From a virus, in the IMG/VR virus record IMGVR_UViG_3300025141_000252, positions 1 through 40,101 of that record: DNA of 40,101 bases. One strand, given 5' to 3'. Position 1 is the first letter of the stretch. Every line of letters starts with the position of its first letter. The notes under the pieces were generated by a model, which was not told the origin of the DNA, did no database searches, and worked only from the letters and a program-made list of their open reading frames with translations. Below are positions 378 to 40,101 of the stretch, in pieces. The position numbers and the translations under genes were made by a program.

Positions 378-599
378 ATGGATTACCAAACAATGTTCAA
401 TTTGGCGGTCGTAGTTGTGGCTTTTTTTGGGGGCTGGATGGTCAACCGTATATTTGTCTTGTTAGATCGGCTCGAAGAGGACATCAAGCTTGTCCCTGAG
501 AAATACATTGCCAAGGATGATTACCGCGAAGATATTAGGGAAATCAAAGACTTACTTGGTGCGATATTTAAGCGATTAGAAAACAAGGCGGACAAATGA
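378..599 (+). CDS. Small single-pass membrane protein with helical tail
   Basis: This 73-residue protein has one clear N-terminal hydrophobic segment (about residues 7-28, containing VVVVAFFGGWMV) followed by a charged amphipathic helix ending in ...ENKADK. The topology of one membrane anchor plus a soluble coiled coil is typical of phage inner-membrane spanins, holin-like or XhlA-like lysis proteins, and the next gene is a lipase. It overlaps that lipase gene by 4 bases (ATGA), so the two are probably co-translated. A role in lysis or envelope disruption is inferred from topology and neighbours only. Confidence 0.75.
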   Translation: MDYQTMFNLAVVVVAFFGGWMVNRIFVLLDRLEEDIKLVPEKYIAKDDYREDIREIKDLLGAIFKRLENKADK

Positions 600-1282
600 A
601 AGCTAAGTCACAGTTACTCAGAACCGCCTGTAAATGGGCAGACAAAGCGTATAACAAGGAAAATGCCGGGGCTATTAAAATAGAAAACAAATGGACCTCA
701 ACCACGGCCTATATAATTAACCAACCGGATCTCAACATCATTGCTTTTCGAGGAACGCAACAGCTACGGGATTGGCTATTTAATTTAAGCGCGATACCCG
801 TACCTTATGCAGGACGTTTGTGTCATTCCGGATTTGTCGCGGCTCATGCCTCTGTCTGGGGGAAGATTAAAAAGCACATTGATTTTGATAAACATACCCT
901 AATTTGCGGCCACTCACTCGGGGGCGCACTTTGCGAAATCTCCGCTGCCAAGCTACACAAGAAGCACAAGAAATTATCTGTAATCACTTTTGGCAAACCC
1001 AACACTTTTTTTAAAGGTTTTAAGCGGCCTATGAAGCTGGAAAACCAAGTGTCTGTTGTCTCGGGAAGCGATCTGGTAGCGCGAATACCACGCCTGTGTT
1101 ATGGCGCAAGTATGAGTCAAAGTATGCTGTACTTTGCTAACAACGGGGATGACTTTGTTGATCCACCCGTGGAATTTAAAAAACGTGATTTTATGAAAGC
1201 CAAGAAAGAAGCTATTTCCGATCATTTTATGCCGGGGTACAAGGAAAGGCTGGATGTGTATCTCAAGAGGAAAAAGAAATAA
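596..1282 (+). CDS. Class 3 lipase (alpha/beta-hydrolase)
   Basis: A 228-residue protein of the fungal-type lipase class 3 family, which hydrolyses ester bonds in triacylglycerols or phospholipids. Visible features: the oxyanion-loop motif FRGT (51-54), the nucleophile elbow GHSLGG (105-110, Ser107), a likely acid Asp159 in GSDLV and a likely base His210 in SDHF, in the order expected for the triad. No signal peptide is seen, so it acts in the cytoplasm unless released by the holin or carried in the virion. The start overlaps the membrane-protein gene by ATGA. The C-terminus is a Lys/Arg run (KRKKK). It may attack host membrane lipids at lysis or entry; this role is inferred. Confidence 0.85.
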   Translation: MKAKSQLLRTACKWADKAYNKENAGAIKIENKWTSTTAYIINQPDLNIIAFRGTQQLRDWLFNLSAIPVPYAGRLCHSGFVAAHASVWGKIKKHIDFDKHTLICGHSLGGALCEISAAKLHKKHKKLSVITFGKPNTFFKGFKRPMKLENQVSVVSGSDLVARIPRLCYGASMSQSMLYFANNGDDFVDPPVEFKKRDFMKAKKEAISDHFMPGYKERLDVYLKRKKK

Positions 1283-1441: not shown

Positions 1442-3511
1442 ATGCCTTTAACGAAACTACAGTTTAGACCGGGAATAAACCGGGAAACCACTTCTTACAC
1501 TAACGAAGGCGGTTGGTTTGATTCTGACAAAGTGCGATTTCGTTTCGGGTTGCCAGAAAAAATAGGAGGCTGGGCAAAAGCTGCAACTAATAGTTTTTTA
1601 GGGATCTGTCGGGCTTTACATAACTGGGTAACCCTAGCGGGAACGCAACTTACAGGAGTGGGTACAACTGTTAAGTATTACATAAAAGAAGGGAATGCCT
1701 TTTATGACATTACCCCTTTACGCAGCACAACGGCTGCGGGAGATGTTACGTTTGCGGCGGTTAACGGCCAGTCTACTCTTACTGTAAGCGACACGGCCCA
1801 CGGAGCGGTAAAAAATGACTTTGTGACGTTTTCCGGGGCGGTTTCTTTAGGAGGCAATATTACTGCGGCGGTACTCAACCAAGAGTATCAGATTACTGAA
1901 GTTGTTAATGACAACAGTTACAAGATTGAAGCCAGAGCCGCAGGTACTTCGATCCAAAGCATTACGGTAGATGGTCAACTTGCGCCTACTCTGGTGACAG
2001 CTAACAGCTCTGACACCGGCAACGGTGGCGCTTCCACTATCGGCTATTACCAAATTAATTCTGGTCTGACTCTCTCGGTTCCCGGCACTGGATGGGGCGC
2101 AGGTACGTGGGGTCGTAGCACATGGGGATCAGGCATTACAGCGACGGCTATTACTAATGAACTACGTCTCTATACTCAGGACAATTTTGGCGAAGATCTT
2201 ATCTTTAATGTGCGTGACGGAAATATCTATTACTGGGACACCAGTGCAGATACGCTGGGGACGGATCGCGCTCTACCTCTTACGGCCATAGCGGGTGGTA
2301 CCTTGTGGGTAAGCGGCACCTCCTATTCCGTAGGGGATAAAGTTTATTCTCCGGCCAACTACCGAAGCTACGAGTGCGTGGTTACTGTCTCAGGGACCAC
2401 GGACCCCAGTGCGGATGCGGCTAACTGGATTCAAATAAGCGACACGACTACTCCCACCAAAGCCAAACAGGTGTTGGTAAGTGATCGAGATCGTCATGTA
2501 GTCGTTTTTGGCACAGATCCTGAAACAGACATTGGCACGATGGACCCCTTACTGATTCGATTTAGCGATCAGGAGTCCATTACTACGTGGACGGCCACCG
2601 CTAACAATACGGCGGGTGATTTGCGAGTAGGCGCGGGATCGCAGATTGTTTGTGCAGTAGAAACGCGCCAACAAGTCCTTGTTTTTACAGACGTTTCCTT
2701 ACACGCCATGCAGTTTTTAGGGCCTCCGTTTACTTTTGGTATCGATCAGATTTCTGAAAATACCACGATTGCCGGACCCTTAGCCGCCAAGGCCGTGGAC
2801 GATACGGTGTTCTGGATGGGGGTAGAAGAGTTTTATATTTACACCGGACAGGTTCAAAAGTTGGCGTGTGCGGTACGTTCTTACGTTTTTAACGATTTTA
2901 ATATTGAACAAATGGAGCTGGTTACTGCTTGCTTGAACAGCTCTTTTTCAGAGATTTGGTGGTTTTATCCTTCCTCTGATGCCACAGAAGTGGACAAGTA
3001 CGTCGTTTACAACTATCAGGAACAGGTGTGGTACTACGGCAGTATGGTCCGCACTTATTGGCTGGATCGCGGAGTCAGCGACTATCCTTTAGCGGCGGGA
3101 ACCGATGGCTACCTTTATAATCAAGAATCTGGACTTAATGACGGCAGCACCAACCCTCCGTCAGCTTTTTCCAGTTACATTGAAAGTAGCCAGTTAAGCA
3201 TTGGCGACGGAGAAGACTTTGTGTTTTTAAGCAAGTTGATACCAGACGTAACATTTGATGCGTCTACTACTTCCTCCCCGGCGGTCACCATGACCTTACA
3301 AACCCGCAATTATCCGGGCGGTCAGTACCTTCAAAGCGATGCGTCTACTGTAACGCAGAGCGCCACAACGCCCGTGGAACAATTTACCACTGAAACCTAT
3401 GTTCGTTTGCGTGGCAGGGCTTTTGCTTTAAAAGTAGATTCCACTATGGCAGACATACAATGGCGCTTAGGCAGTCCTCGCGTTGAAGTGCGTTCTGACG
3501 GGAGGCGTTAG
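1442..3511 (+). CDS. Large virion structural protein, probable tail/connector component
   Basis: This 689-residue protein starts with MPLTKLQFRPGINRET and a motif WFDSDKVRFRFG...EKIGGW, a signature I associate with structural proteins of marine podovirus-like phages. The rest is rich in beta-strand-forming Thr, Val, Ser, Tyr and aromatic residues, with no membrane segment, as expected of a tail-tube, head-closure or receptor-binding protein. It is the first gene of a long operon of virion proteins; its stop overlaps the next GTG start. Its role could resemble the P22 gp10-type DNA-stabilisation/tail-hub proteins, but that link is inferred. An enzymatic role is unlikely because no catalytic motif is visible. 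Confidence 0.75.
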   Translation: MPLTKLQFRPGINRETTSYTNEGGWFDSDKVRFRFGLPEKIGGWAKAATNSFLGICRALHNWVTLAGTQLTGVGTTVKYYIKEGNAFYDITPLRSTTAAGDVTFAAVNGQSTLTVSDTAHGAVKNDFVTFSGAVSLGGNITAAVLNQEYQITEVVNDNSYKIEARAAGTSIQSITVDGQLAPTLVTANSSDTGNGGASTIGYYQINSGLTLSVPGTGWGAGTWGRSTWGSGITATAITNELRLYTQDNFGEDLIFNVRDGNIYYWDTSADTLGTDRALPLTAIAGGTLWVSGTSYSVGDKVYSPANYRSYECVVTVSGTTDPSADAANWIQISDTTTPTKAKQVLVSDRDRHVVVFGTDPETDIGTMDPLLIRFSDQESITTWTATANNTAGDLRVGAGSQIVCAVETRQQVLVFTDVSLHAMQFLGPPFTFGIDQISENTTIAGPLAAKAVDDTVFWMGVEEFYIYTGQVQKLACAVRSYVFNDFNIEQMELVTACLNSSFSEIWWFYPSSDATEVDKYVVYNYQEQVWYYGSMVRTYWLDRGVSDYPLAAGTDGYLYNQESGLNDGSTNPPSAFSSYIESSQLSIGDGEDFVFLSKLIPDVTFDASTTSSPAVTMTLQTRNYPGGQYLQSDASTVTQSATTPVEQFTTETYVRLRGRAFALKVDSTMADIQWRLGSPRVEVRSDGRR

Positions 3512-4782
3512 TGGCTAACGGTATTCCTTTATCTCCGTCTGATCCTCTTTATATTCACAGCGATTCTGGATACAGCCCAGAAGTGCTTTCGGATATGCAA
3601 TCGGCAGAAGTAACTTTTGATCCAAGTCAGTATCCCCCTTCGCAGGGTATTGGAGACTTAGGTGCTTTTCAAAAAATAGGGGCTTATCTTCGCGGAGTGT
3701 CGGAATGGCCTGAGACCATAGGTAATTACTTTATACGGGCCGATGAGCGCCTCCAGCCTTCTTTCATAAGTGGTGAAGAATTGGGCGGCGATATTGCCGG
3801 ACTAGGTACAGCCATTGTTGAAGGAGCGCGAGAAGATCCGTTAGGAACTATTGCAGACATGACCCCTATTGTGGGCGAAACTCGCGCTGTAATGAGTGCC
3901 AATAACTTAATCAAGCAAGCACTTGCGGCAGAAGATGCAGGAGATTTTGATAAAGCCAGTACCTTGCGGCAACTAGCTTCCATGGAAATGACCAGTGTTT
4001 TACCTTTTGTTCCTCGCGCTGCCGTAAAACGGCGTGGTATTTGGGATGATGACCGTCGGCATGACCCTCACGAACCCGAAGCTGACAGACGGCAACGAGA
4101 ACGAACTCTGGCTCGACAACGACGCAAACAAGAAGAAGAGCGACGGCAACAGGAAAGTGACGCTCGAAGAGAACCTCCACCTACTCCACAAGAACCTTCG
4201 CCCACGGTCCAAGATTCGCTTTTTAGTGAACTGGATATGACCCCTGCTGCTAGATTAGGCCGCGCAGCAGAACAAGGGTGGAATACCAAGCGTATTCTTT
4301 ACCATTATACTCCTGCTGACCTAGAGGACTTTACAGAATTTAAACTTCCTGATCCTCCTAAAAATTCTGCTTATGGTCCCGGCGTTTATACTTCACCAAG
4401 TCCTGATAGGTTTGGTGGCCTCGGGCCATGGGGTGAGCTTAACCGCAACCGAATACCCTTATTTTCACGAGGAAAGTTGGCAACACCCACTGAGGTGGGC
4501 GCAGCCGAAAGACTAGTAAAGGAGCGGATAACCGAAGGCACACGTGCCCCTATGCTTGATCCGGGTCAATCGGGTAATTGGAGGCATGAATATTGGTCTG
4601 ATATTCATCAAGTTTTAAAAGACCAAGGTTTTAGTGGAATGCACATAGGCGGAGAAATAATTTTAATGTTTGACCCTAAAAATTTGCGACACATAGAGGC
4701 GGAGTTCGACCCTGCTAAAGCAGATTCGGCTAATTTACGGGCGGGCATTGGTTCATTAGAGGCAATGGAGGGTGTGGCGTAA
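3511..4782 (+). CDS. Virion-operon protein with C-terminal ADP-ribosyltransferase-like (ART-PolyVal type) domain
   Basis: A 423-residue protein. Residues 1-175 are of unknown fold; 176-235 are a charged Arg/Gln/Glu then Pro-rich linker; 250-412 match the ART fold found in phage polyvalent proteins. The apparent H-Y-E catalytic set is His265 in LYHYTP, Tyr293 in GPGVYTS and Glu382 in GGEIILMFDP, followed by the typical tail NLRHIEAEFDP...DSANLRAGIG. Such domains transfer ADP-ribose from NAD+ to host proteins or nucleic acid. The GTG start has a strong GGGAGG site 5 bases upstream and overlaps the preceding stop. Position inside the structural operon suggests it is packaged and injected; target and activity are unknown. 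Confidence 0.75.
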   Translation: MANGIPLSPSDPLYIHSDSGYSPEVLSDMQSAEVTFDPSQYPPSQGIGDLGAFQKIGAYLRGVSEWPETIGNYFIRADERLQPSFISGEELGGDIAGLGTAIVEGAREDPLGTIADMTPIVGETRAVMSANNLIKQALAAEDAGDFDKASTLRQLASMEMTSVLPFVPRAAVKRRGIWDDDRRHDPHEPEADRRQRERTLARQRRKQEEERRQQESDARREPPPTPQEPSPTVQDSLFSELDMTPAARLGRAAEQGWNTKRILYHYTPADLEDFTEFKLPDPPKNSAYGPGVYTSPSPDRFGGLGPWGELNRNRIPLFSRGKLATPTEVGAAERLVKERITEGTRAPMLDPGQSGNWRHEYWSDIHQVLKDQGFSGMHIGGEIILMFDPKNLRHIEAEFDPAKADSANLRAGIGSLEAMEGVA

Positions 4783-5081
4783 TGAGTTCGCGTAAGGTCG
4801 TAAGGCCCTTATTTCCTCAAGCTCCAAGAGAATACAACCAGAATTACGCGGCCGAAGTAGTTCGTGCCTTTTCCGTGTTTCTTGAACAAGCACAGAATCC
4901 CGGCGAATTACGGGCCACGGACATTACTCTTACGAATTTACAGGACAATAATCAGGGACTAGAAACAGGGGCCGTCTTTCAAGTAAACGGCGTCTTACAC
5001 ATTACACTTGCTAATCAACCTTATCCTGCTGGTTTAACTGCTACCAGCGCCGTAGGATCGGTAACGGTTTCCTTACCATGA
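4782..5081 (+). CDS. Small beta-rich virion-operon protein, unknown
   Basis: A 99-residue protein of unknown family. After a basic N-terminus (SSRKVVRPLFPQAP) there is a short helix with Tyr/Phe and then alternating hydrophobic residues that suggest a small beta-sandwich (TGAVFQVNGVLHITLANQPY, then TSAVGSVTVSLP). No Cys, membrane segment or catalytic motif. Its ATG overlaps the stop of the ART-like gene, and it lies in the uninterrupted structural operon, so a minor virion component is the natural guess. Confidence 0.7.
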   Translation: MSSRKVVRPLFPQAPREYNQNYAAEVVRAFSVFLEQAQNPGELRATDITLTNLQDNNQGLETGAVFQVNGVLHITLANQPYPAGLTATSAVGSVTVSLP

Positions 5082-5143
5082 ACAATGACAATTTTGCTTC
5101 TTTAGGCAATAATACCCAGATAATCATTGGAGTGTGCTTGTGA
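5078..5143 (+). CDS. Tiny 21-codon ORF bridging two virion genes (doubtful)
   Basis: An ATG at 5078 overlaps the previous stop (ATGA) and the ORF's TGA overlaps the GTG start of the next gene (GTGA), so it exactly fills the 58-base gap. It encodes MNNDNFASLGNNTQIIIGVC plus Leu. No good ribosome binding site precedes it. It may simply carry ribosomes across the gap by coupling rather than make a functional peptide. Confidence 0.25.
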   Translation: MNNDNFASLGNNTQIIIGVCL

Positions 5144-6951
5144 ACGATTTTGTGCGTCCAGAATCTATGGAAGTTCCCGATGGGGGTCTTGCTTCTTTTC
5201 TTACGGCAACCGTCGGAGAATGGGCCGATGACGACGTTCCTCACAACGGTATTGCTGGACTTCACAATGTAGCGGACAAACTGGCGGAGTACGGACGTTA
5301 CGAAGACACGTACATGGTCCATGCCGCCGAAGGCGAAACGGTCATTCCCATGGCTGTTTTTGACGAGAATCCTCGCCTGAAAGAGAGTTTATTCAACCAA
5401 ATGCGGGCTATGGGAATCGATCCCGAGCGGTACGTGGTTGGCAGCGAGCTTAATTCCATTAACCCTGTCACGGGTCAGCCTGAGTTTTTTCTCAAGAAAT
5501 TATTCAAAGGGCTAAAGAAAGCCGTTAAAAAAGTAATCAGGGTCGTTAAAAAAGTAGCGCCTATCGCACTCTCTATTGGGCTAAACTTTGTTCCCGGCGT
5601 AGGACCTATTCTTGCAGCTTCTTTAGGAAGCGGCATTGGCACTTTAATACAAGGTGGCGATCTTAAAGACGCTCTTAAAATGGGGGCTATTGGTGGCCTG
5701 ACCGCTGGACTGTTTAAAGGCATTCAAGGCGGCTTTAGAGGAATGAAAGCAGGACAGGGGTTTGGCACAGGATTTGGAGCAGGAGTGCGTTCCGGTCTAC
5801 CGGGTGCGGCACCGTATAACCCCGTAGCTGCGCAACTTAACCAAAATGCAGCACAGGCGGCACAAGCTAAGTTACCGGTTACTCAACCCCCGGCCGGATC
5901 TCTTAGTGTTTCACCTACTGGTGCAGGTGTGCCCCAAGGAACCGTTTCGGCAACGCATATTCCACCGGGCGGTCAGGTTAATACGGCTGGGTTACCGGTC
6001 GGTCCTGTGCAGGGTGCGCCACAAGTGACTGGGCCGCCCACTGCTTCTTCTAATCTTTCAACAGATATGTGGGCAAATACGAAGCCGGGATTTTTACCCC
6101 AAAATGTTAATCCGCAAGGGGATGTAGTTGGAGCGCAAACCACCGGGGACTCGCTTGCGCAATTGTCTCGCCAAGCCCAAACTACCGGCGCGGACGTGAA
6201 GGCTCCCACTGTAACCAGCGGCATTGAAACAACAGCCACAGGAACCACCACCGCTGATGCGTTGGGACAAATTCAAAAACCACCGGGCTTTTTCAGTTCC
6301 GTAAAAGATATGTTTACCCCCGGAGGGGATGATTTTTTCACCGCAGGAAGAAAAGCTTTTTTCCCTTCCAGCTATACACCTGAAGAAATTTTAAGAGCGG
6401 AACTTGGCTTAACTACCGAAGCTACAGTTGGCGAAGTTATGCAAAAAGCTGCACAAACAGAGGGGTTACAAGGGCTAGGCTATCGCGATTTATTGGCTGC
6501 GTTTGGAAATGCAGAAGGCTATAACCCCGGCTTGGGACGCACATGGGGGCCATTGGCAGGTGCGGGCATTTTGGGCCTTGCCGCTACTGGCGGTTTTAAA
6601 CCGCCTGAAATGGAAGAAGCTCCTGATCCGTTTGATTTGGGAGGTCAAGGTGCGTGGGATCTATTGGCCGCTAATCCCCAGAAATACAGAGTTTTTGCCG
6701 GTGGGGCACCTTATAACCTCACTGCCTCGCCGTATGGCGCAGCGCAGGGAGGTTATACTTCCGATTTTCCTCGTAGAGACGGCGCTATCTCTGGCCCCGG
6801 CACAGGCACTTCCGATGACATCCCCGCCATGCTTTCGGATGGCGAATTCGTAATGACCGAACGAGCAGTACGAGGCGCAGGAAACGGTGACCGAGGCCAA
6901 GGCGTAAGGAAAATGTACGAAATAATGAGGACATACGAGGGAGTTGCCTGA
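5140..6951 (+). CDS. Virion protein with membrane-active glycine-rich core, probable DNA-ejection protein
   Basis: About 603 residues. GTG at 5140 is preferred over GTG at 5134 because GGAG (5129-5132) sits 7 bases upstream. Residues 55-120 form a conserved-looking domain (ETVIPMAVF, MGIDPERYVVG, INPVTGQPEFF); 120-140 are very basic; 138-200 are a Gly/Ala-rich hydrophobic stretch (GLNFVPGVGPILAASLG) that could insert in a membrane; 210-410 are a low-complexity Pro/Gly/Thr/Gln linker. The C-terminus carries DDIPAMLSDGEFVMTERA, a motif recurrent in marine phage structural proteins. Context among giant virion proteins suggests a role in ejecting DNA across the envelope; not proven. Confidence 0.7.
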   Translation: MNDFVRPESMEVPDGGLASFLTATVGEWADDDVPHNGIAGLHNVADKLAEYGRYEDTYMVHAAEGETVIPMAVFDENPRLKESLFNQMRAMGIDPERYVVGSELNSINPVTGQPEFFLKKLFKGLKKAVKKVIRVVKKVAPIALSIGLNFVPGVGPILAASLGSGIGTLIQGGDLKDALKMGAIGGLTAGLFKGIQGGFRGMKAGQGFGTGFGAGVRSGLPGAAPYNPVAAQLNQNAAQAAQAKLPVTQPPAGSLSVSPTGAGVPQGTVSATHIPPGGQVNTAGLPVGPVQGAPQVTGPPTASSNLSTDMWANTKPGFLPQNVNPQGDVVGAQTTGDSLAQLSRQAQTTGADVKAPTVTSGIETTATGTTTADALGQIQKPPGFFSSVKDMFTPGGDDFFTAGRKAFFPSSYTPEEILRAELGLTTEATVGEVMQKAAQTEGLQGLGYRDLLAAFGNAEGYNPGLGRTWGPLAGAGILGLAATGGFKPPEMEEAPDPFDLGGQGAWDLLAANPQKYRVFAGGAPYNLTASPYGAAQGGYTSDFPRRDGAISGPGTGTSDDIPAMLSDGEFVMTERAVRGAGNGDRGQGVRKMYEIMRTYEGVA

Positions 6952-36010: not shown

Positions 36011-38446
36011 ATGGCGAACGGCGAAAGCATAACCCCCATGGTTGAACGAACCGTAGACGTTGAAATAGAAGATGATTTAGAGATTGGTGCGCCTAATACA
36101 ACTGGTTTAAACGTGGACGAGTTGATGGCCGAGGTAGAGATCACAGACTCGGACGATGGTGGGGTCCTTGTTGATTTTGCGCCTCAAGAAGAGACGTTTA
36201 TAGACGAAGGGGATTTTTACCGAAATCTGGCCGAAGACATGGATGACGTGGTTTTAGGAACGATGTCCAGTGATTTGCAGGGGCAGTACGAAGGAAACAA
36301 GGAAACCCGCAAAGAATGGATGGACACTTATTCGGAAGGGCTGAAGCTACTGGGCTTTAAATACGAAGAGCGCACTGAACCTTTTCGCGGGGCCACGGGA
36401 GTCACTCACCCTATTTTGGCGGAAGCTGCCACGCAATTTCAGGCTCAAGCCTACAACGAACTTTTACCCCCCGGTGGTCCTGTTCGCACCGTGGTCATGG
36501 GTGCGCCTACCAAGGAAAAAGAGCAACAGGCTACCCGAGTTAAAGAATACATGAATTATTGTTTGACCGAAGTGATGGAGGAATACACCCCCGAATTCGA
36601 TCAGATGTTGTTTTATTTGCCCTTAGCCGGTTCTACCTTTAAGAAAGTTTACTACGATGCGGCACTGGATCGCCCTGTGTCTACGTTTGTTCCTGCGGAA
36701 AACTTAGTGGTTCCGTATGAAACCAGCAACCTCGAAACCTGTCCGATTATTACTCATGTGGTTCCCATGAGTGAAAATGATCTTAGAAAACAGCAGATTG
36801 CAGGTTTTTATCGTGACGTAGAACTCAATCCTCAACAAACGCCAGATAACGAAGTGAGGCAGGAGCTGAACAAGATTGAAGGCGTAGATCCGTCCTCTAC
36901 TGTGAATTACGACGTTAACCTGTTGGAGTTTCACGTAGAACTGGATCTGGAAGGATTTGAGGATATTGACGAAGGTGGAGAGCCTACCGGCATTAAACTC
37001 CCGTATGTTGTTACGATAAGTGAAGAAAAAGGCACCGTATTATCTATACGTCGCAATTACCGGGAAGGTGATCCGCAAAAGAAAAAAATAGCTTATTTTG
37101 TGCATTACAAGTTTTTGCCCGGTTTCGGTTTCTATGGCCTTGGACTGATTCACACCATCGGTGGGTTGTCCCGTACAGCTACGGCTTCTCTCCGACAGCT
37201 TATCGATGCGGGCACTTTGTCTAATTTACCGGCGGGCTTCAAGGCCCGTGGCCTACGGGTGAGGGATGACGCTGATCCGTTACAGCCCGGTGAGTTCCGA
37301 GATGTGGACGCTCCCGGCGGAGCGATCAGGGACAGCTTGATGCCATTGCCTTTTAAAGGACCGGACACGACGTTGTTTCAGTTACTGGGTTTTGTGGTGG
37401 ATGCGGCGCAGCGGTTTGCCACGATTACCGACATGAAAGTGGGTGACGGTAATCAGCAAGCAGCAGTGGGTACAACGGTAGCACTACTGGAGCAGGGTGC
37501 ACGGGTAATGAGCGCGGTACATAAGCGGCTGCATTACGCGATGCGCAATGAATTTAAGATTTTGGCACGAGTGATGCACGAATCGTTGCCGCAGGAATAT
37601 CCGTATTCAGTTGCGGGTGGTGAACAAACCATTATGGCGCAGGATTTTGATGACAGGGTTGATGTATTCCCTGTTTCAAATCCTAATATTTTTTCACAAG
37701 CGCAGCGTATTGCCTTGGCCCAAAGCCAGTTAGAGTTAGCAATACAAGCGCCAGAGCTGCATAACTCGCAAGAAGCGTTCCGAAGAATGTACGAAGCCTT
37801 GGGTGTGCGCGATATTGACAGCATTTTGAAAGCGCCAGAGCTTGAAGAACCCTTACCTAAAGACCCTGCACAGGAAAATGTGGACGCTTTGGAAAGCACA
37901 GAGCTTAAAGCTTTCGAGGGACAGGACCACACGGCGCATATTACGGCGCATTTAACCTTTATGGCGGGTGGAATGGTGCAGCAATTACCGGAGGTGGTGG
38001 TTTCTTTGCAAAAACACGTCCTTGAACACGTTAAATTGAAGGCCAGAGAGCAAGCGGCCATCCAATTTATGCAGGAAAATCAAGGACAACCGGCAACAGA
38101 GGATCAAATGTTGCAGGTTGAGACGCTAATAGCCCAGATTATTGCGCAGGAGATGACTGCGTTGCGTCAACAAAGCCAGCAAATTGCAGGTGGAGGCGAA
38201 GAAGAAGGCCCAGATCCGTTAATCGCGCTGAAACAGCAAGAAATAGACATAAAAGGGCAGAAAACACAGGCAGATATAGCCAACGATCAAGCAAAACTGG
38301 CCTTAGAAGAGCAAAAAGTGGTTCAAAGAGGCGAACAGTTTGAAGATCGGATAGAATCGCAGGAAAAACAGACCGCAGAACGTATTCGAGCGTCAGATAG
38401 GCGTGAAATGATGCGTTTACGTGAAAAATTAGGAGAAACTCCATGA
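36011..38446 (+). CDS. Portal protein
   Basis: 811 residues resembling long podovirus-type portals. Landmarks: the N-terminal FYRNLAEDMDDVVLGTMSSD, then GFKYEERTEPFRGATGVTHPILAEAATQFQAQAYNELLPPGGPV, LAGSTFKKVYYD, and a long charged coiled-coil C-terminus (KAREQAAIQFMQEN; RIESQEKQTAERIRASDRREMMRLRE). The ring forms the DNA entry channel and binds TerL. AGGAG precedes the ATG, which follows the previous stop directly; its own stop overlaps the next ATG. The C-terminal helix could form the barrel that reaches into the capsid. Confidence 0.9.
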   Translation: MANGESITPMVERTVDVEIEDDLEIGAPNTTGLNVDELMAEVEITDSDDGGVLVDFAPQEETFIDEGDFYRNLAEDMDDVVLGTMSSDLQGQYEGNKETRKEWMDTYSEGLKLLGFKYEERTEPFRGATGVTHPILAEAATQFQAQAYNELLPPGGPVRTVVMGAPTKEKEQQATRVKEYMNYCLTEVMEEYTPEFDQMLFYLPLAGSTFKKVYYDAALDRPVSTFVPAENLVVPYETSNLETCPIITHVVPMSENDLRKQQIAGFYRDVELNPQQTPDNEVRQELNKIEGVDPSSTVNYDVNLLEFHVELDLEGFEDIDEGGEPTGIKLPYVVTISEEKGTVLSIRRNYREGDPQKKKIAYFVHYKFLPGFGFYGLGLIHTIGGLSRTATASLRQLIDAGTLSNLPAGFKARGLRVRDDADPLQPGEFRDVDAPGGAIRDSLMPLPFKGPDTTLFQLLGFVVDAAQRFATITDMKVGDGNQQAAVGTTVALLEQGARVMSAVHKRLHYAMRNEFKILARVMHESLPQEYPYSVAGGEQTIMAQDFDDRVDVFPVSNPNIFSQAQRIALAQSQLELAIQAPELHNSQEAFRRMYEALGVRDIDSILKAPELEEPLPKDPAQENVDALESTELKAFEGQDHTAHITAHLTFMAGGMVQQLPEVVVSLQKHVLEHVKLKAREQAAIQFMQENQGQPATEDQMLQVETLIAQIIAQEMTALRQQSQQIAGGGEEEGPDPLIALKQQEIDIKGQKTQADIANDQAKLALEEQKVVQRGEQFEDRIESQEKQTAERIRASDRREMMRLREKLGETP

Positions 38447-38652
38447 GCAGAACCGTAAAAACAGGTGGTGCGCCGCCTCCCAAGACCCCAAAAGCTACCA
38501 AATTTGAGGTAATCAAGGACCAAGGTAAGGCTCCTTTCAGCGATTACAAGGAAATTCCTACGCCTAAGAATTTAGGCAAGGGCAAGGTGACAACAGGCAC
38601 TTGTCGGGGTATGGGCGCCATGTTGCGTGGCGGAAAGTTCACCATTAACTAA
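38443..38652 (+). CDS. Small conserved phage protein (RGMGAxxRGG)
   Basis: 69 residues, basic and Pro/Lys/Gly-rich, with a C-terminal CRGMGAMLRGGKFTIN motif found in short proteins next to portal genes of other tailed phages. AGGAGAAACTCC provides the ribosome site. ATGA overlap with the portal gene, TAATG overlap with the next. Function unknown; head assembly by context. Confidence 0.75.
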   Translation: MSRTVKTGGAPPPKTPKATKFEVIKDQGKAPFSDYKEIPTPKNLGKGKVTTGTCRGMGAMLRGGKFTIN

Positions 38653-38885
38653 TGGAAGACAATATTTTACTTGCCGATGGCTTTGATGCCGCCCTTATAG
38701 GCACTGGGGAGCGGTGTGGTCAGCCTACTCTGGCGGTTTACGACAGAGAAAAGTGTATTGAAATATTGCAAGGTCAAGGAATGTCCTACGACGAGGCCCA
38801 AGAGTATTTTGACTTTAATGTAGTGGGAGCTTGGGTTGGTGAACAAACCCCTATTTTTGTAAATGTAGGTGATTTATGCCATTAA
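38652..38885 (+). CDS. Small conserved phage protein (DGFDxAxxG ... GMSxxEA)
   Basis: 77 residues with landmarks [40 protein letters not shown] and [20 protein letters not shown]. Small proteins with this pattern are widespread in marine and other tailed phages; no activity is known. Overlaps the next gene by 10 bases. Confidence 0.78.
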
Positions 38886-39022
38886 AGAAAGGTCGCAGTA
38901 AAAAAACTGTAAGTGGCAATGTAAGAAAATTAAAAGGCGAAGGCTATCCGCAAAAACAAGCGGTAGCCATTGCACTTAACACCGCCGGTAAAGGCCGACG
39001 CAAAAGGAGACGTTCCACGTGA
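38876..39022 (+). CDS. Small basic conserved phage protein ([10 protein letters not shown])
   Basis: 48 residues, [20 protein letters not shown] then [24 protein letters not shown], a very basic protein with a short central helix. The QKQAVAIAL motif is common in tiny structural-region proteins of tailed phages. Overlaps the previous gene by 10 bases and the lipoprotein gene by 4 bases (GTGA). Nucleic-acid binding is plausible. Confidence 0.78.
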
Positions 39023-39255
39023 AACATTCCTGTCTATTGTTTGTGTTTTTGTTAAGCAGTTGTTCTGTAAGCGAAGACATGATTGCCAATAAGGAGCTTT
39101 ATTGCTCTGAAATCTATAAAGGTATCCGTGCGGTAGGGCGTGTAGCTACTGAAGTTACAACAGGTGTCGCTATTGTCGATGTGTGTGACACCATCGATGA
39201 AATTGTCGAGGAGGAAAACGCTGACGCAACCGACAAAAGTGATTCGGAATCTTGA
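39019..39255 (+). CDS. Small lipoprotein near lysis genes
   Basis: 78 residues from GTG 39019. The N-terminus [15 protein letters not shown] is a lipoprotein signal with lipobox LSSC and predicted lipidated Cys15, directing the mature 64-residue protein to the periplasmic face of a membrane. The rest is acidic, with two further Cys and no proline-rich stretch, unlike typical Rz1. Sits immediately before a holin-like gene and lysozyme, so an outer-membrane spanin or superinfection-exclusion lipoprotein is possible. AGGAGA precedes the start. Confidence 0.72.
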
Positions 39256-39284
39256 AGCGTTAATAAAGCTATGGTTGATATTTT

Positions 39285-39752
39285 ATGAAGCTTAAAGGGA
39301 TTCTTGGAGCATTAGCTCCTACGCTCGTTAAAACGGTAGCGAGTAGTAATCCTATCGCTGGAATGGCCGTAAAGTTAGCCGCTAAAAAGCTAGGAATGCC
39401 CGAAACATCCAGCATAGAACAGATAGAAGAAGTGGTTGAGAACGAACCGGAAAAAGCCGAGATTCTGCAAGATGCAGAACTAGAAATTAAAAAATTAACG
39501 GCTAATATCGAGGGGTTTCGACTTGAGACGGAAGACAGGCAAGACGCGAGAGCTAAGTTTGCCAAGGACCCTACGCCTAAGCTTATTGCAGTTTTGGCGA
39601 TGGTGGGATTCTTGGCGTATATATTTATGGTCACGCTTCAAGCGCCTGAGAGCAATGATGATGCGATTGTCAACTTGGTTCTCGGTTATCTTGGCGGTCT
39701 GGTTAGCGGCATTGCCAGTTTCTACTTCGGGTCTAGCCACAATGGAAATTAA
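39285..39752 (+). CDS. Holin-like membrane protein
   Basis: 155 residues. Residues 1-35 are an amphipathic/hydrophobic helix, 45-90 an acidic coiled coil, and 100-118 and 128-149 are two transmembrane segments (LIAVLAMVGFLAYIFMVTL; VNLVLGYLGGLVSGIASFYF). This resembles the 3TM holins of gene transfer agents and marine phages. It overlaps the lysozyme gene by 11 bases. It would make inner-membrane holes so lysozyme reaches the cell wall. Assignment rests on topology and on the neighbouring lysozyme. Confidence 0.75.
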   Translation: MKLKGILGALAPTLVKTVASSNPIAGMAVKLAAKKLGMPETSSIEQIEEVVENEPEKAEILQDAELEIKKLTANIEGFRLETEDRQDARAKFAKDPTPKLIAVLAMVGFLAYIFMVTLQAPESNDDAIVNLVLGYLGGLVSGIASFYFGSSHNGN

Positions 39753-40101
39753 AGGTATGGAAAAACTTATAGAACAGCTAAAACGCCACGAAGGTGTGAA
39801 GACTAGGGCTTACAGGGATCAGTTCGGCACTTGGCACATTGGTGCTGGACGCAATATACACCCTGACGGCCAGCATCAAGGCATTGGTTTAAGCATCGAG
39901 GAAATCGACTTCATGCTGAGCAATGACATTGTTAGGACGATTCAAGAATTAAGCACGGAATATGATTGGTTTAATGATTTGGAAGAAGGCGCAAGGCGTG
40001 ACGGCATCATCAATATGCACTTTAATCTTGGTAGGGTTCGTTTCTCCAAGTTTAAGAAGGCCATCGCTCATATGGAGAAAGGTGACCACGACGCAGCAGC
40101 T
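39742..40101 (+). CDS. T4-type lysozyme (endolysin), 3'-truncated by the window edge
   Basis: The visible 120 residues belong to the phage T4 lysozyme family, which cleaves the beta-1,4 bond between MurNAc and GlcNAc. The catalytic Glu17 (RHEG) and Asp26 (YRDQFG) have T4 spacing (E11, D20). The T4 Thr26 position is His32 (TWHIGAG). The second half shows the typical GARRDGIINMHFNLGRVRFSKF. Start is ATG 39742, though ATG 39757 is also possible; neither has a strong ribosome site. No signal peptide, so export relies on the holin. The C-terminal part lies outside the window. Confidence 0.93.
   Translation, partial: MEIKGMEKLIEQLKRHEGVKTRAYRDQFGTWHIGAGRNIHPDGQHQGIGLSIEEIDFMLSNDIVRTIQELSTEYDWFNDLEEGARRDGIINMHFNLGRVRFSKFKKAIAHMEKGDHDAAA

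What the first reader, a model, noticed from the sequence alone, without database searches (positions are those of the whole stretch)
4258..4747. ADP-ribosyltransferase-like domain encoded inside the virion operon
Residues 250-412 of the 423-residue protein show an H-Y-E set (His265, Tyr293, Glu382) and the tail pattern of ART-PolyVal domains, joined by a Pro-rich linker to an unknown N-terminus. Its place between structural genes suggests a packaged, injected host-modifying enzyme, analogous in logic to T4 Alt but of a different ART subfamily.
Basis: partly seen in the sequence, partly recalled or inferred. Interest (0 to 1): 0.75.

Follow-up and report, generated by a model that had tools for sequence, protein, structure and literature searches.

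The report
Phage virion-operon ADP-ribosyltransferase-like protein
A short-tailed phage carries, among the genes for its particle, a two-part protein whose tail end is a divergent ADP-ribosyltransferase domain and whose front end is a reusable carrier module that other phages join to a different enzyme-like domain, so it is probably a packaged effector of an already described kind.

Summary
ORF 3511-4782 (423 aa) ends in a divergent ART-PolyVal-type domain (residues 243-413). Pfam's PF18760 model does not see it directly, but a profile built without the window scores it at 121 bits, E 6e-36 (best of 2000 shuffles 7.4 bits). Its closest relatives (37-39% identity) match PF18760 themselves; a further relative passes the curated cut-off. 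His265, Tyr293 and Glu382 align with His 19/19, Tyr 17/19 and Glu 17/19, but Glu382 lies one residue further from the F-D-P motif than in relatives. The domain models at mostly 90-97 pLDDT.

The main addition is the N-terminus. Residues 4-184 are a mobile carrier module. In phages with an orthologous portal it is joined to an HExxH-bearing part with weak polyvalent-domain matches. In L004/L007 the helical part stands alone. The gene is optional: 28 of 33 comparable loci lack it.

Packaging and injection remain inference, helped by gene context and by a phage A-4L pre-ejectosome protein with a similar domain. The general idea is published (PMC5512222, PMC9503650). New member of a known kind.

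The parts
3511..4782 (+). Whole gene: 423-aa bipartite protein (carrier module + ART-like domain)
   Evidence: overlaps the stop of the upstream gene and the ATG of the downstream gene
3523..3645 (+). Leader, residues 5-45 (PLSPSDPLYIHSDSGYSPEVLSDMQ...), shared with L002 (internal, residues 328-371) and L189-L195
3658..4050 (+). Helical carrier module, residues 50-180; also in L005, L004, L007, L086 and, with the leader, in L189-L195
   Evidence: predicted helices
4078..4215 (+). Linker, residues 190-235: charged helix then Pro-rich stretch
   Evidence: Sequence; model
4237..4749 (+). ART-PolyVal-type domain, residues 243-413
   Evidence: model pLDDT about 90-97 in most of it
4303..4305 (+). 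His265 codon (motif 1, L-Y-H-Y-T)
   Evidence: His in 19 of 19 in the close set; 32 of 40 in the wider set
4387..4389 (+). Tyr293 codon (motif 2, G-P-G-V-Y)
   Evidence: Tyr in 17 of 19; 21 of 40 wider, otherwise Phe, Met or Trp
4654..4656 (+). Glu382 codon (motif 3), one residue out of register with relatives
   Evidence: Glu in 17 of 19 with a one-column gap; positional count
1442..3511 (+). Upstream neighbour: stabilization-type virion structural protein
   Evidence: phrog_3287 E 1.3e-62; matches annotated as stabilization protein in phages
4782..5081 (+). Downstream neighbour: conserved 99-aa protein that marks the far edge of the optional slot
   Evidence: Nucleotide identity to relatives resumes at 4774-4782; slot census
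5134..6951 (+). Next virion-operon gene, C-terminus like tape-measure proteins
   Evidence: PHROG tail families E 8e-7 and weaker
36011..38446 (+). Portal gene, orthologous to the portals that follow the carrier+HExxH genes of L189-L195
   Evidence: phrog_1216 E 4e-55; phmmer E 0

Best explanation
The gene encodes a polyvalent-type phage effector made of two modules. The N-terminal carrier (leader plus helical module) most likely docks the protein in the capsid or with the internal ejection proteins. The C-terminal ART-like domain travels with it into the host at DNA entry, binds NAD+ through His265 and Tyr293, and with Glu382 transfers ADP-ribose to one or more host macromolecules early in infection, favouring phage takeover. 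Shown here: the homology of both modules, conservation of the triad in close relatives, the predicted fold, the location in the virion operon, and the exchange or absence of the C-terminal partner. Inferred: packaging, ejection, catalysis. Unknown: the target.
For: ART homology: phmmer of the L106 domain to the window E 1e-17; L110-L116 at 37-39% identity, E 7e-28; leave-one-out HMM E 6e-36; L110, L091, L106 match PF18760 at E 6e-8 to 7e-6 and L105 passes its cut-off. Triad columns. Confident domain model; BFVD matches include proteins named ART-PolyVal at E below 1e-3. The family profile's best, non-significant PDB sequence match is the catalytic part of a known bacterial ART toxin with motifs 1 and 2 in register, E 0.17. 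Packaging: the gene lies between virion genes; in the closest domain relatives the ART gene lies between portal and scaffold/major head protein; the top PDB fold match is 9k3a_B, phage A-4L pre-ejectosome protein, which carries an ART-like LYHGT...GTYF region near residues 1422-1600, E 9e-4. Polyvalent logic: the same carrier is joined to a part with HExxH and LPD23/DUF6782 matches (E 1e-4 to 1e-3, below cut-offs) next to the portal in L189-L195. Published model: PMC5512222, PMC9503650.
Against: No proteomics or biochemistry. Glu382 is one residue out of register with most relatives, and the window lacks the Y-x-x-R-Y segment after motif 2 seen in many relatives, so the domain could be inactive. 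Pfam's own model misses it. The Foldseek match to 9k3a_B has TM-score 0.18 on the query, and the tool did not show which region aligned. No isolated ART structure was a significant PDB fold match; the RES toxin 9r35 was second at E 0.24. Most relatives of the phage lack the gene, so it is not essential.
Confidence: 0.6

Rival explanations
1. Packaged but catalytically dead: the ART fold is kept as a structural or NAD-binding module of an internal virion protein.
For: The family holds many rows with changed motif residues: His changed in 8 of 40, Tyr changed in 19 of 40, Glu at -4 in only 15 of the 36 counted. In the window Glu382 is shifted by one. The A-4L pre-ejectosome protein also has Thr at -4 and Asp at -5 (sequence).
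Against: All three residues are kept in the window and in nearly all of its closest relatives. HY-[EDQ] variation is described for viral ARTs (PMC9503650).
Confidence: 0.22
2. Active ART made late but not packaged: it acts in the producing cell (for example on host takeover, lysis timing or exclusion of rival phages) as an accessory gene in the late operon.
For: The gene is optional and swapped as a whole between two conserved genes. Nothing shown here proves packaging.
Against: The carrier is shared with proteins next to the portal that carry polyvalent-type matches. ART relatives sit between portal and scaffold. A published survey puts about 44% of phage ARTs in contexts that suggest head packaging (PMC9503650).
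Confidence: 0.2
3. NADase rather than transferase: the domain drains host NAD+ like RES-type toxins.
For: The second PDB fold match is an Xre-RES toxin complex chain (9r35_D, E 0.24, prob 0.41).
Against: The match is not significant, and sequence homologues are all ART-PolyVal type.
Confidence: 0.1
4. The ART resemblance is a chance motif match in an unrelated tail protein.
For: No Pfam or PHROG match of the window protein itself to an ART family.
Against: E 6e-36 against a leave-one-out profile; 2000 shuffles reach at most 7.4 bits.
Confidence: 0.01

Closest known systems
ART-PolyVal (Pfam PF18760) domains of polyvalent proteins, Tox-ART-HYD2 clade (PMC5512222)
   Same: Motif 1 Y-H-x-T, motif 2 G-x-G-(V/I)-Y, C-terminal F-D-P-x-N-(I/L)-R...A-x-F-D-P tail; encoded among virion genes
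   Different: Below detection by the Pfam model; third residue is Glu (the HYD2 description has Asp) and is shifted by one; the protein is small with its own carrier module
Portal-adjacent ART genes of P22-like phages, L110-L122 and L091 (found here)
   Same: 37-39% identity over the domain for the best; weak N-terminal similarity (E about 1e-3)
   Different: Gene lies between portal and scaffold; the window gene lies after the stabilization gene
Carrier + HExxH proteins of L189-L195 (found here; weak matches to LPD23 PF18838 and DUF6782 PF20573)
   Same: Residues 4-184 of the window protein, phmmer E about 1e-37; phages with an orthologous portal
   Different: C-terminal partner is a putative zinc-peptidase-like part instead of an ART; gene lies directly before the portal
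Anabaena phage A-4L pre-ejectosome protein (PDB 9k3a_B, annotated tail protein)
   Same: Top PDB fold match; contains an ART-like region; is part of a solved pre-ejectosome
   Different: 1717 aa, different architecture; ART-like region weak (E 9e-4) and third residue changed
T4 Alt
   Same: Proposed logic: head-packaged ART injected with DNA
   Different: R-S-E clade according to the literature (PMC5512222); a different ART subfamily

Membership tests
ART-PolyVal (PF18760) | Score over Pfam's curated cut-off (31.2 bits) | tested here: not met
   No match of the window protein at E up to 5 or up to 10 in a search of this record alone. It is therefore described as a divergent homologue, not a curated member.
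ART-PolyVal (PF18760) | Homology to proteins that do match the model | tested here: met
   L110 (E 7e-28 to window) matches PF18760 at E 6e-8; L091 2e-8; L106 7e-6; L105 over cut-off
ART-PolyVal (PF18760) | H-Y-[E/D/Q] active-site set | tested here: met
   His265, Tyr293, Glu382 in conserved columns; caveat: Glu one residue out of register
ART-PolyVal (PF18760) | ART fold | tested here: inconclusive
   Confident model with strands at motifs 1, 2 and 3; BFVD matches named ART-PolyVal below 1e-3; no significant match to a solved ART apart from 9k3a_B, whose aligned region is not known
ART-PolyVal (PF18760) | NAD+-dependent ADP-ribosyl transfer | not testable with these tools
   Needs biochemistry
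Phage polyvalent protein (PMC5512222) | Two or more functionally different domains in one chain | tested here: inconclusive
   ART plus a carrier of unknown function; only in L189-L195 is the carrier joined to matches for LPD23 and a metallopeptidase, below cut-offs
Phage polyvalent protein (PMC5512222) | Encoded near late virion genes | tested here: met
Phage polyvalent protein (PMC5512222) | Present in the virion and delivered to the host | not testable with these tools
   Needs virion proteomics and a delivery assay
T4 Alt family | R-S-E active-site clade | tested here: not met
   Motifs are H-Y-E and homologues are ART-PolyVal type; no Alt match in Pfam

The most novel reading that the evidence does not exclude
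Residues 4-184 are an undescribed capsid- or ejectosome-docking module, comparable in logic to MuF, which short-tailed phages fuse to interchangeable effectors (an ART here, a putative zinc peptidase in L189-L195, or none) and move between two sites of the virion operon.
Probability: 0.4. Interest if true: 0.6.

Novelty: new member of a known kind. Interest (0 to 1): 0.42.

Why it matters
It adds a clear podovirus case to the idea that ADP-ribosyltransferases ride into bacteria inside phage particles. It also points to a small shared carrier module without a Pfam or PHROG family, which could be tested directly as a delivery signal. The link to a solved pre-ejectosome protein gives a concrete place where such domains may sit in the particle.

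Tried and rejected
Direct Pfam, PHROG and PADLOC scans of the window protein gave nothing useful. Searches of viral contigs with the full protein or its C-terminus as single queries found no relatives. Searches of bacterial genomes with the carrier and with the ART alignment found none. Single-sequence structure prediction was poor, pLDDT 49, and was not used. The domain tree places the window with L110-L117/L091/L106 and not with L005, which would mean an ART exchanged under a common carrier, but a joint window+L005 clade is not rejected (AU p 0.065), so no claim is made. No paper on the A-4L ejectosome was found in the library. The shared C-terminal letters EGVA of genes 3511-4782 and 5134-6951 were put down to the Shine-Dalgarno-like sequence of the overlapping next gene (by eye only). 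No Macro-domain or ADP-ribosylhydrolase partner turned up among the window ORFs scanned. In one search the second-round profile had taken in the window itself; that round's E-value is not used.

Full report
The window is a whole IMG/VR virus record of 40,101 bases. It has a family-A type DNA polymerase, terminase, portal and a stabilization-type structural protein. No major capsid gene was recognised and no end repeat was found, so the record may be incomplete.

ORF 3511-4782 encodes 423 residues and overlaps the genes on both sides. Pfam and PHROGs do not recognise the protein, and PF18760 fails even when only this record is searched. Relatives make the case. The stabilization gene led to relatives of the phage, one of which (L005) has a gene in the same place with an ART-PolyVal-like end. 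That end led to a set of viral ART-PolyVal domains. One of these, L106, finds the window protein at E 1e-17 among 1464 ORFs. An alignment scan then found relatives with 37-39% identity (L110-L116; phmmer E 7e-28). L110, L091 and L106 match PF18760 (E 6e-8 to 7e-6), and L105 passes the curated cut-off. A profile built without the window scores it at 121 bits, E 6e-36, against at most 7.4 bits in 2000 shuffles.

In the close set His265 is kept in 19 of 19 rows (the window counted), Tyr293 in 17 and Glu382 in 17, the others having Thr or Gln. In the wider family Glu at the usual place is common but not universal, and His and Tyr also vary. Activity is therefore likely but not certain. The domain is modelled with mostly 90-97 pLDDT blocks: a helix 245-254, strands at 257-267, 292-295 and 313-320, and strands at 374-379 and 383-386 around Glu382.

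Fold comparison: the viral library returns many polyvalent and ART-PolyVal phage proteins, best E 8e-12. The best PDB match is 9k3a_B, cyanophage A4 pre-ejectosome (E 1.1e-3, prob 1.00). By sequence that chain is the 1717-aa protein A4L_27 of Anabaena phage A-4L. That protein has a L-Y-H-G-T...G-T-Y-F region near 1422-1600, which the family profile finds at E 9e-4 for the protein and 0.013 for the stretch. The region that Foldseek aligned was not shown and the TM-score is low, so this is support, not proof, that ART-like domains sit in podovirus ejection complexes.

The N-terminal half turned out to be the more informative part. Its helical module occurs in L005/L006 with an ART, and in L004 and L007 (and L086) without one. 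The leader peptide is also found inside an otherwise unrelated 1135-aa protein that fills the same slot in L002, a relative 86% identical in the neighbouring protein. A scan with the leader found L189-L195. There, leader and helical module together (window residues 4-184, E about 1e-37) lie inside larger proteins, directly before a portal gene orthologous to the window's. The C-terminal partner has an HExxH motif (HEVQHGVQ, HETQHAVQ), and Pfam gives weak matches to LPD23, E 1.4e-4, and to a putative metallopeptidase family, E 1.5e-3, both below cut-off. The carrier profile also touches the N-termini of several ART proteins next to portals at E about 1e-3.

The gene is optional and is exchanged as a whole. 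Nucleotide similarity to L002 runs to window 3516 and resumes at 4774. Of 33 loci where both flanking genes were found, 28 have no gene between them. In the closest ART relatives the gene lies instead between portal and scaffold/major head protein of P22-like operons.

Taken together, the best reading is a packaged, two-module effector of the polyvalent kind. This kind is published: ARTs are described as the commonest predicted protein-modifying domains of polyvalent proteins, encoded near virion genes and compared with T4 Alt (PMC5512222), and viral HY-[EDQ] ARTs are described with MuF fusions and head-gene neighbourhoods (PMC9503650). What this case adds is the small carrier module and its exchangeable partners. 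Packaging, delivery, catalysis and target remain to be shown.

Noticed in passing
window 596-1282: A class 3 lipase domain (PF01764, E 9.9e-18) is encoded just upstream of the stabilization gene, within the virion operon.
   Followed up: no
window 36011-40101 and 1-1442: No scaffold or major capsid gene was recognised between portal and stabilization gene, and no end repeat was found; the record may be missing a stretch.
   Followed up: partly
L189-L195: Proteins directly before the portal combine the carrier module with an HExxH-containing part (weak LPD23 and DUF6782 matches); a putative polyvalent peptidase.
   Followed up: partly
L187:20116-25269 (Anabaena phage A-4L gene 27, PDB 9k3a_B): Unannotated ART-like region near residues 1422-1600 of a pre-ejectosome protein recorded only as tail protein.
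   Followed up: partly
L002:7365-10772: A 1135-aa protein of no known family fills the same slot in a close relative and shares only the leader peptide, internally.
   Followed up: partly
L088:13866-15290 (Phage DSL-LC04): A different 474-aa protein, unrelated to the window gene, lies between the stabilization gene and the next small gene.
   Followed up: no
L127, L129, L136, L145, L154, L157: A sister group has AYRGL in place of the Y-H-x-T motif but keeps the RMQRAQ entry and the NIRSINAEFDP-like tail; a changed or inactive version of the domain.
   Followed up: no
L007:3306-8619: ORFs with RCC1-like repeats (WGYNHRGQLGLGD) and one that looks like a sulfotransferase lie in the tail region; by eye only.
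   Followed up: no
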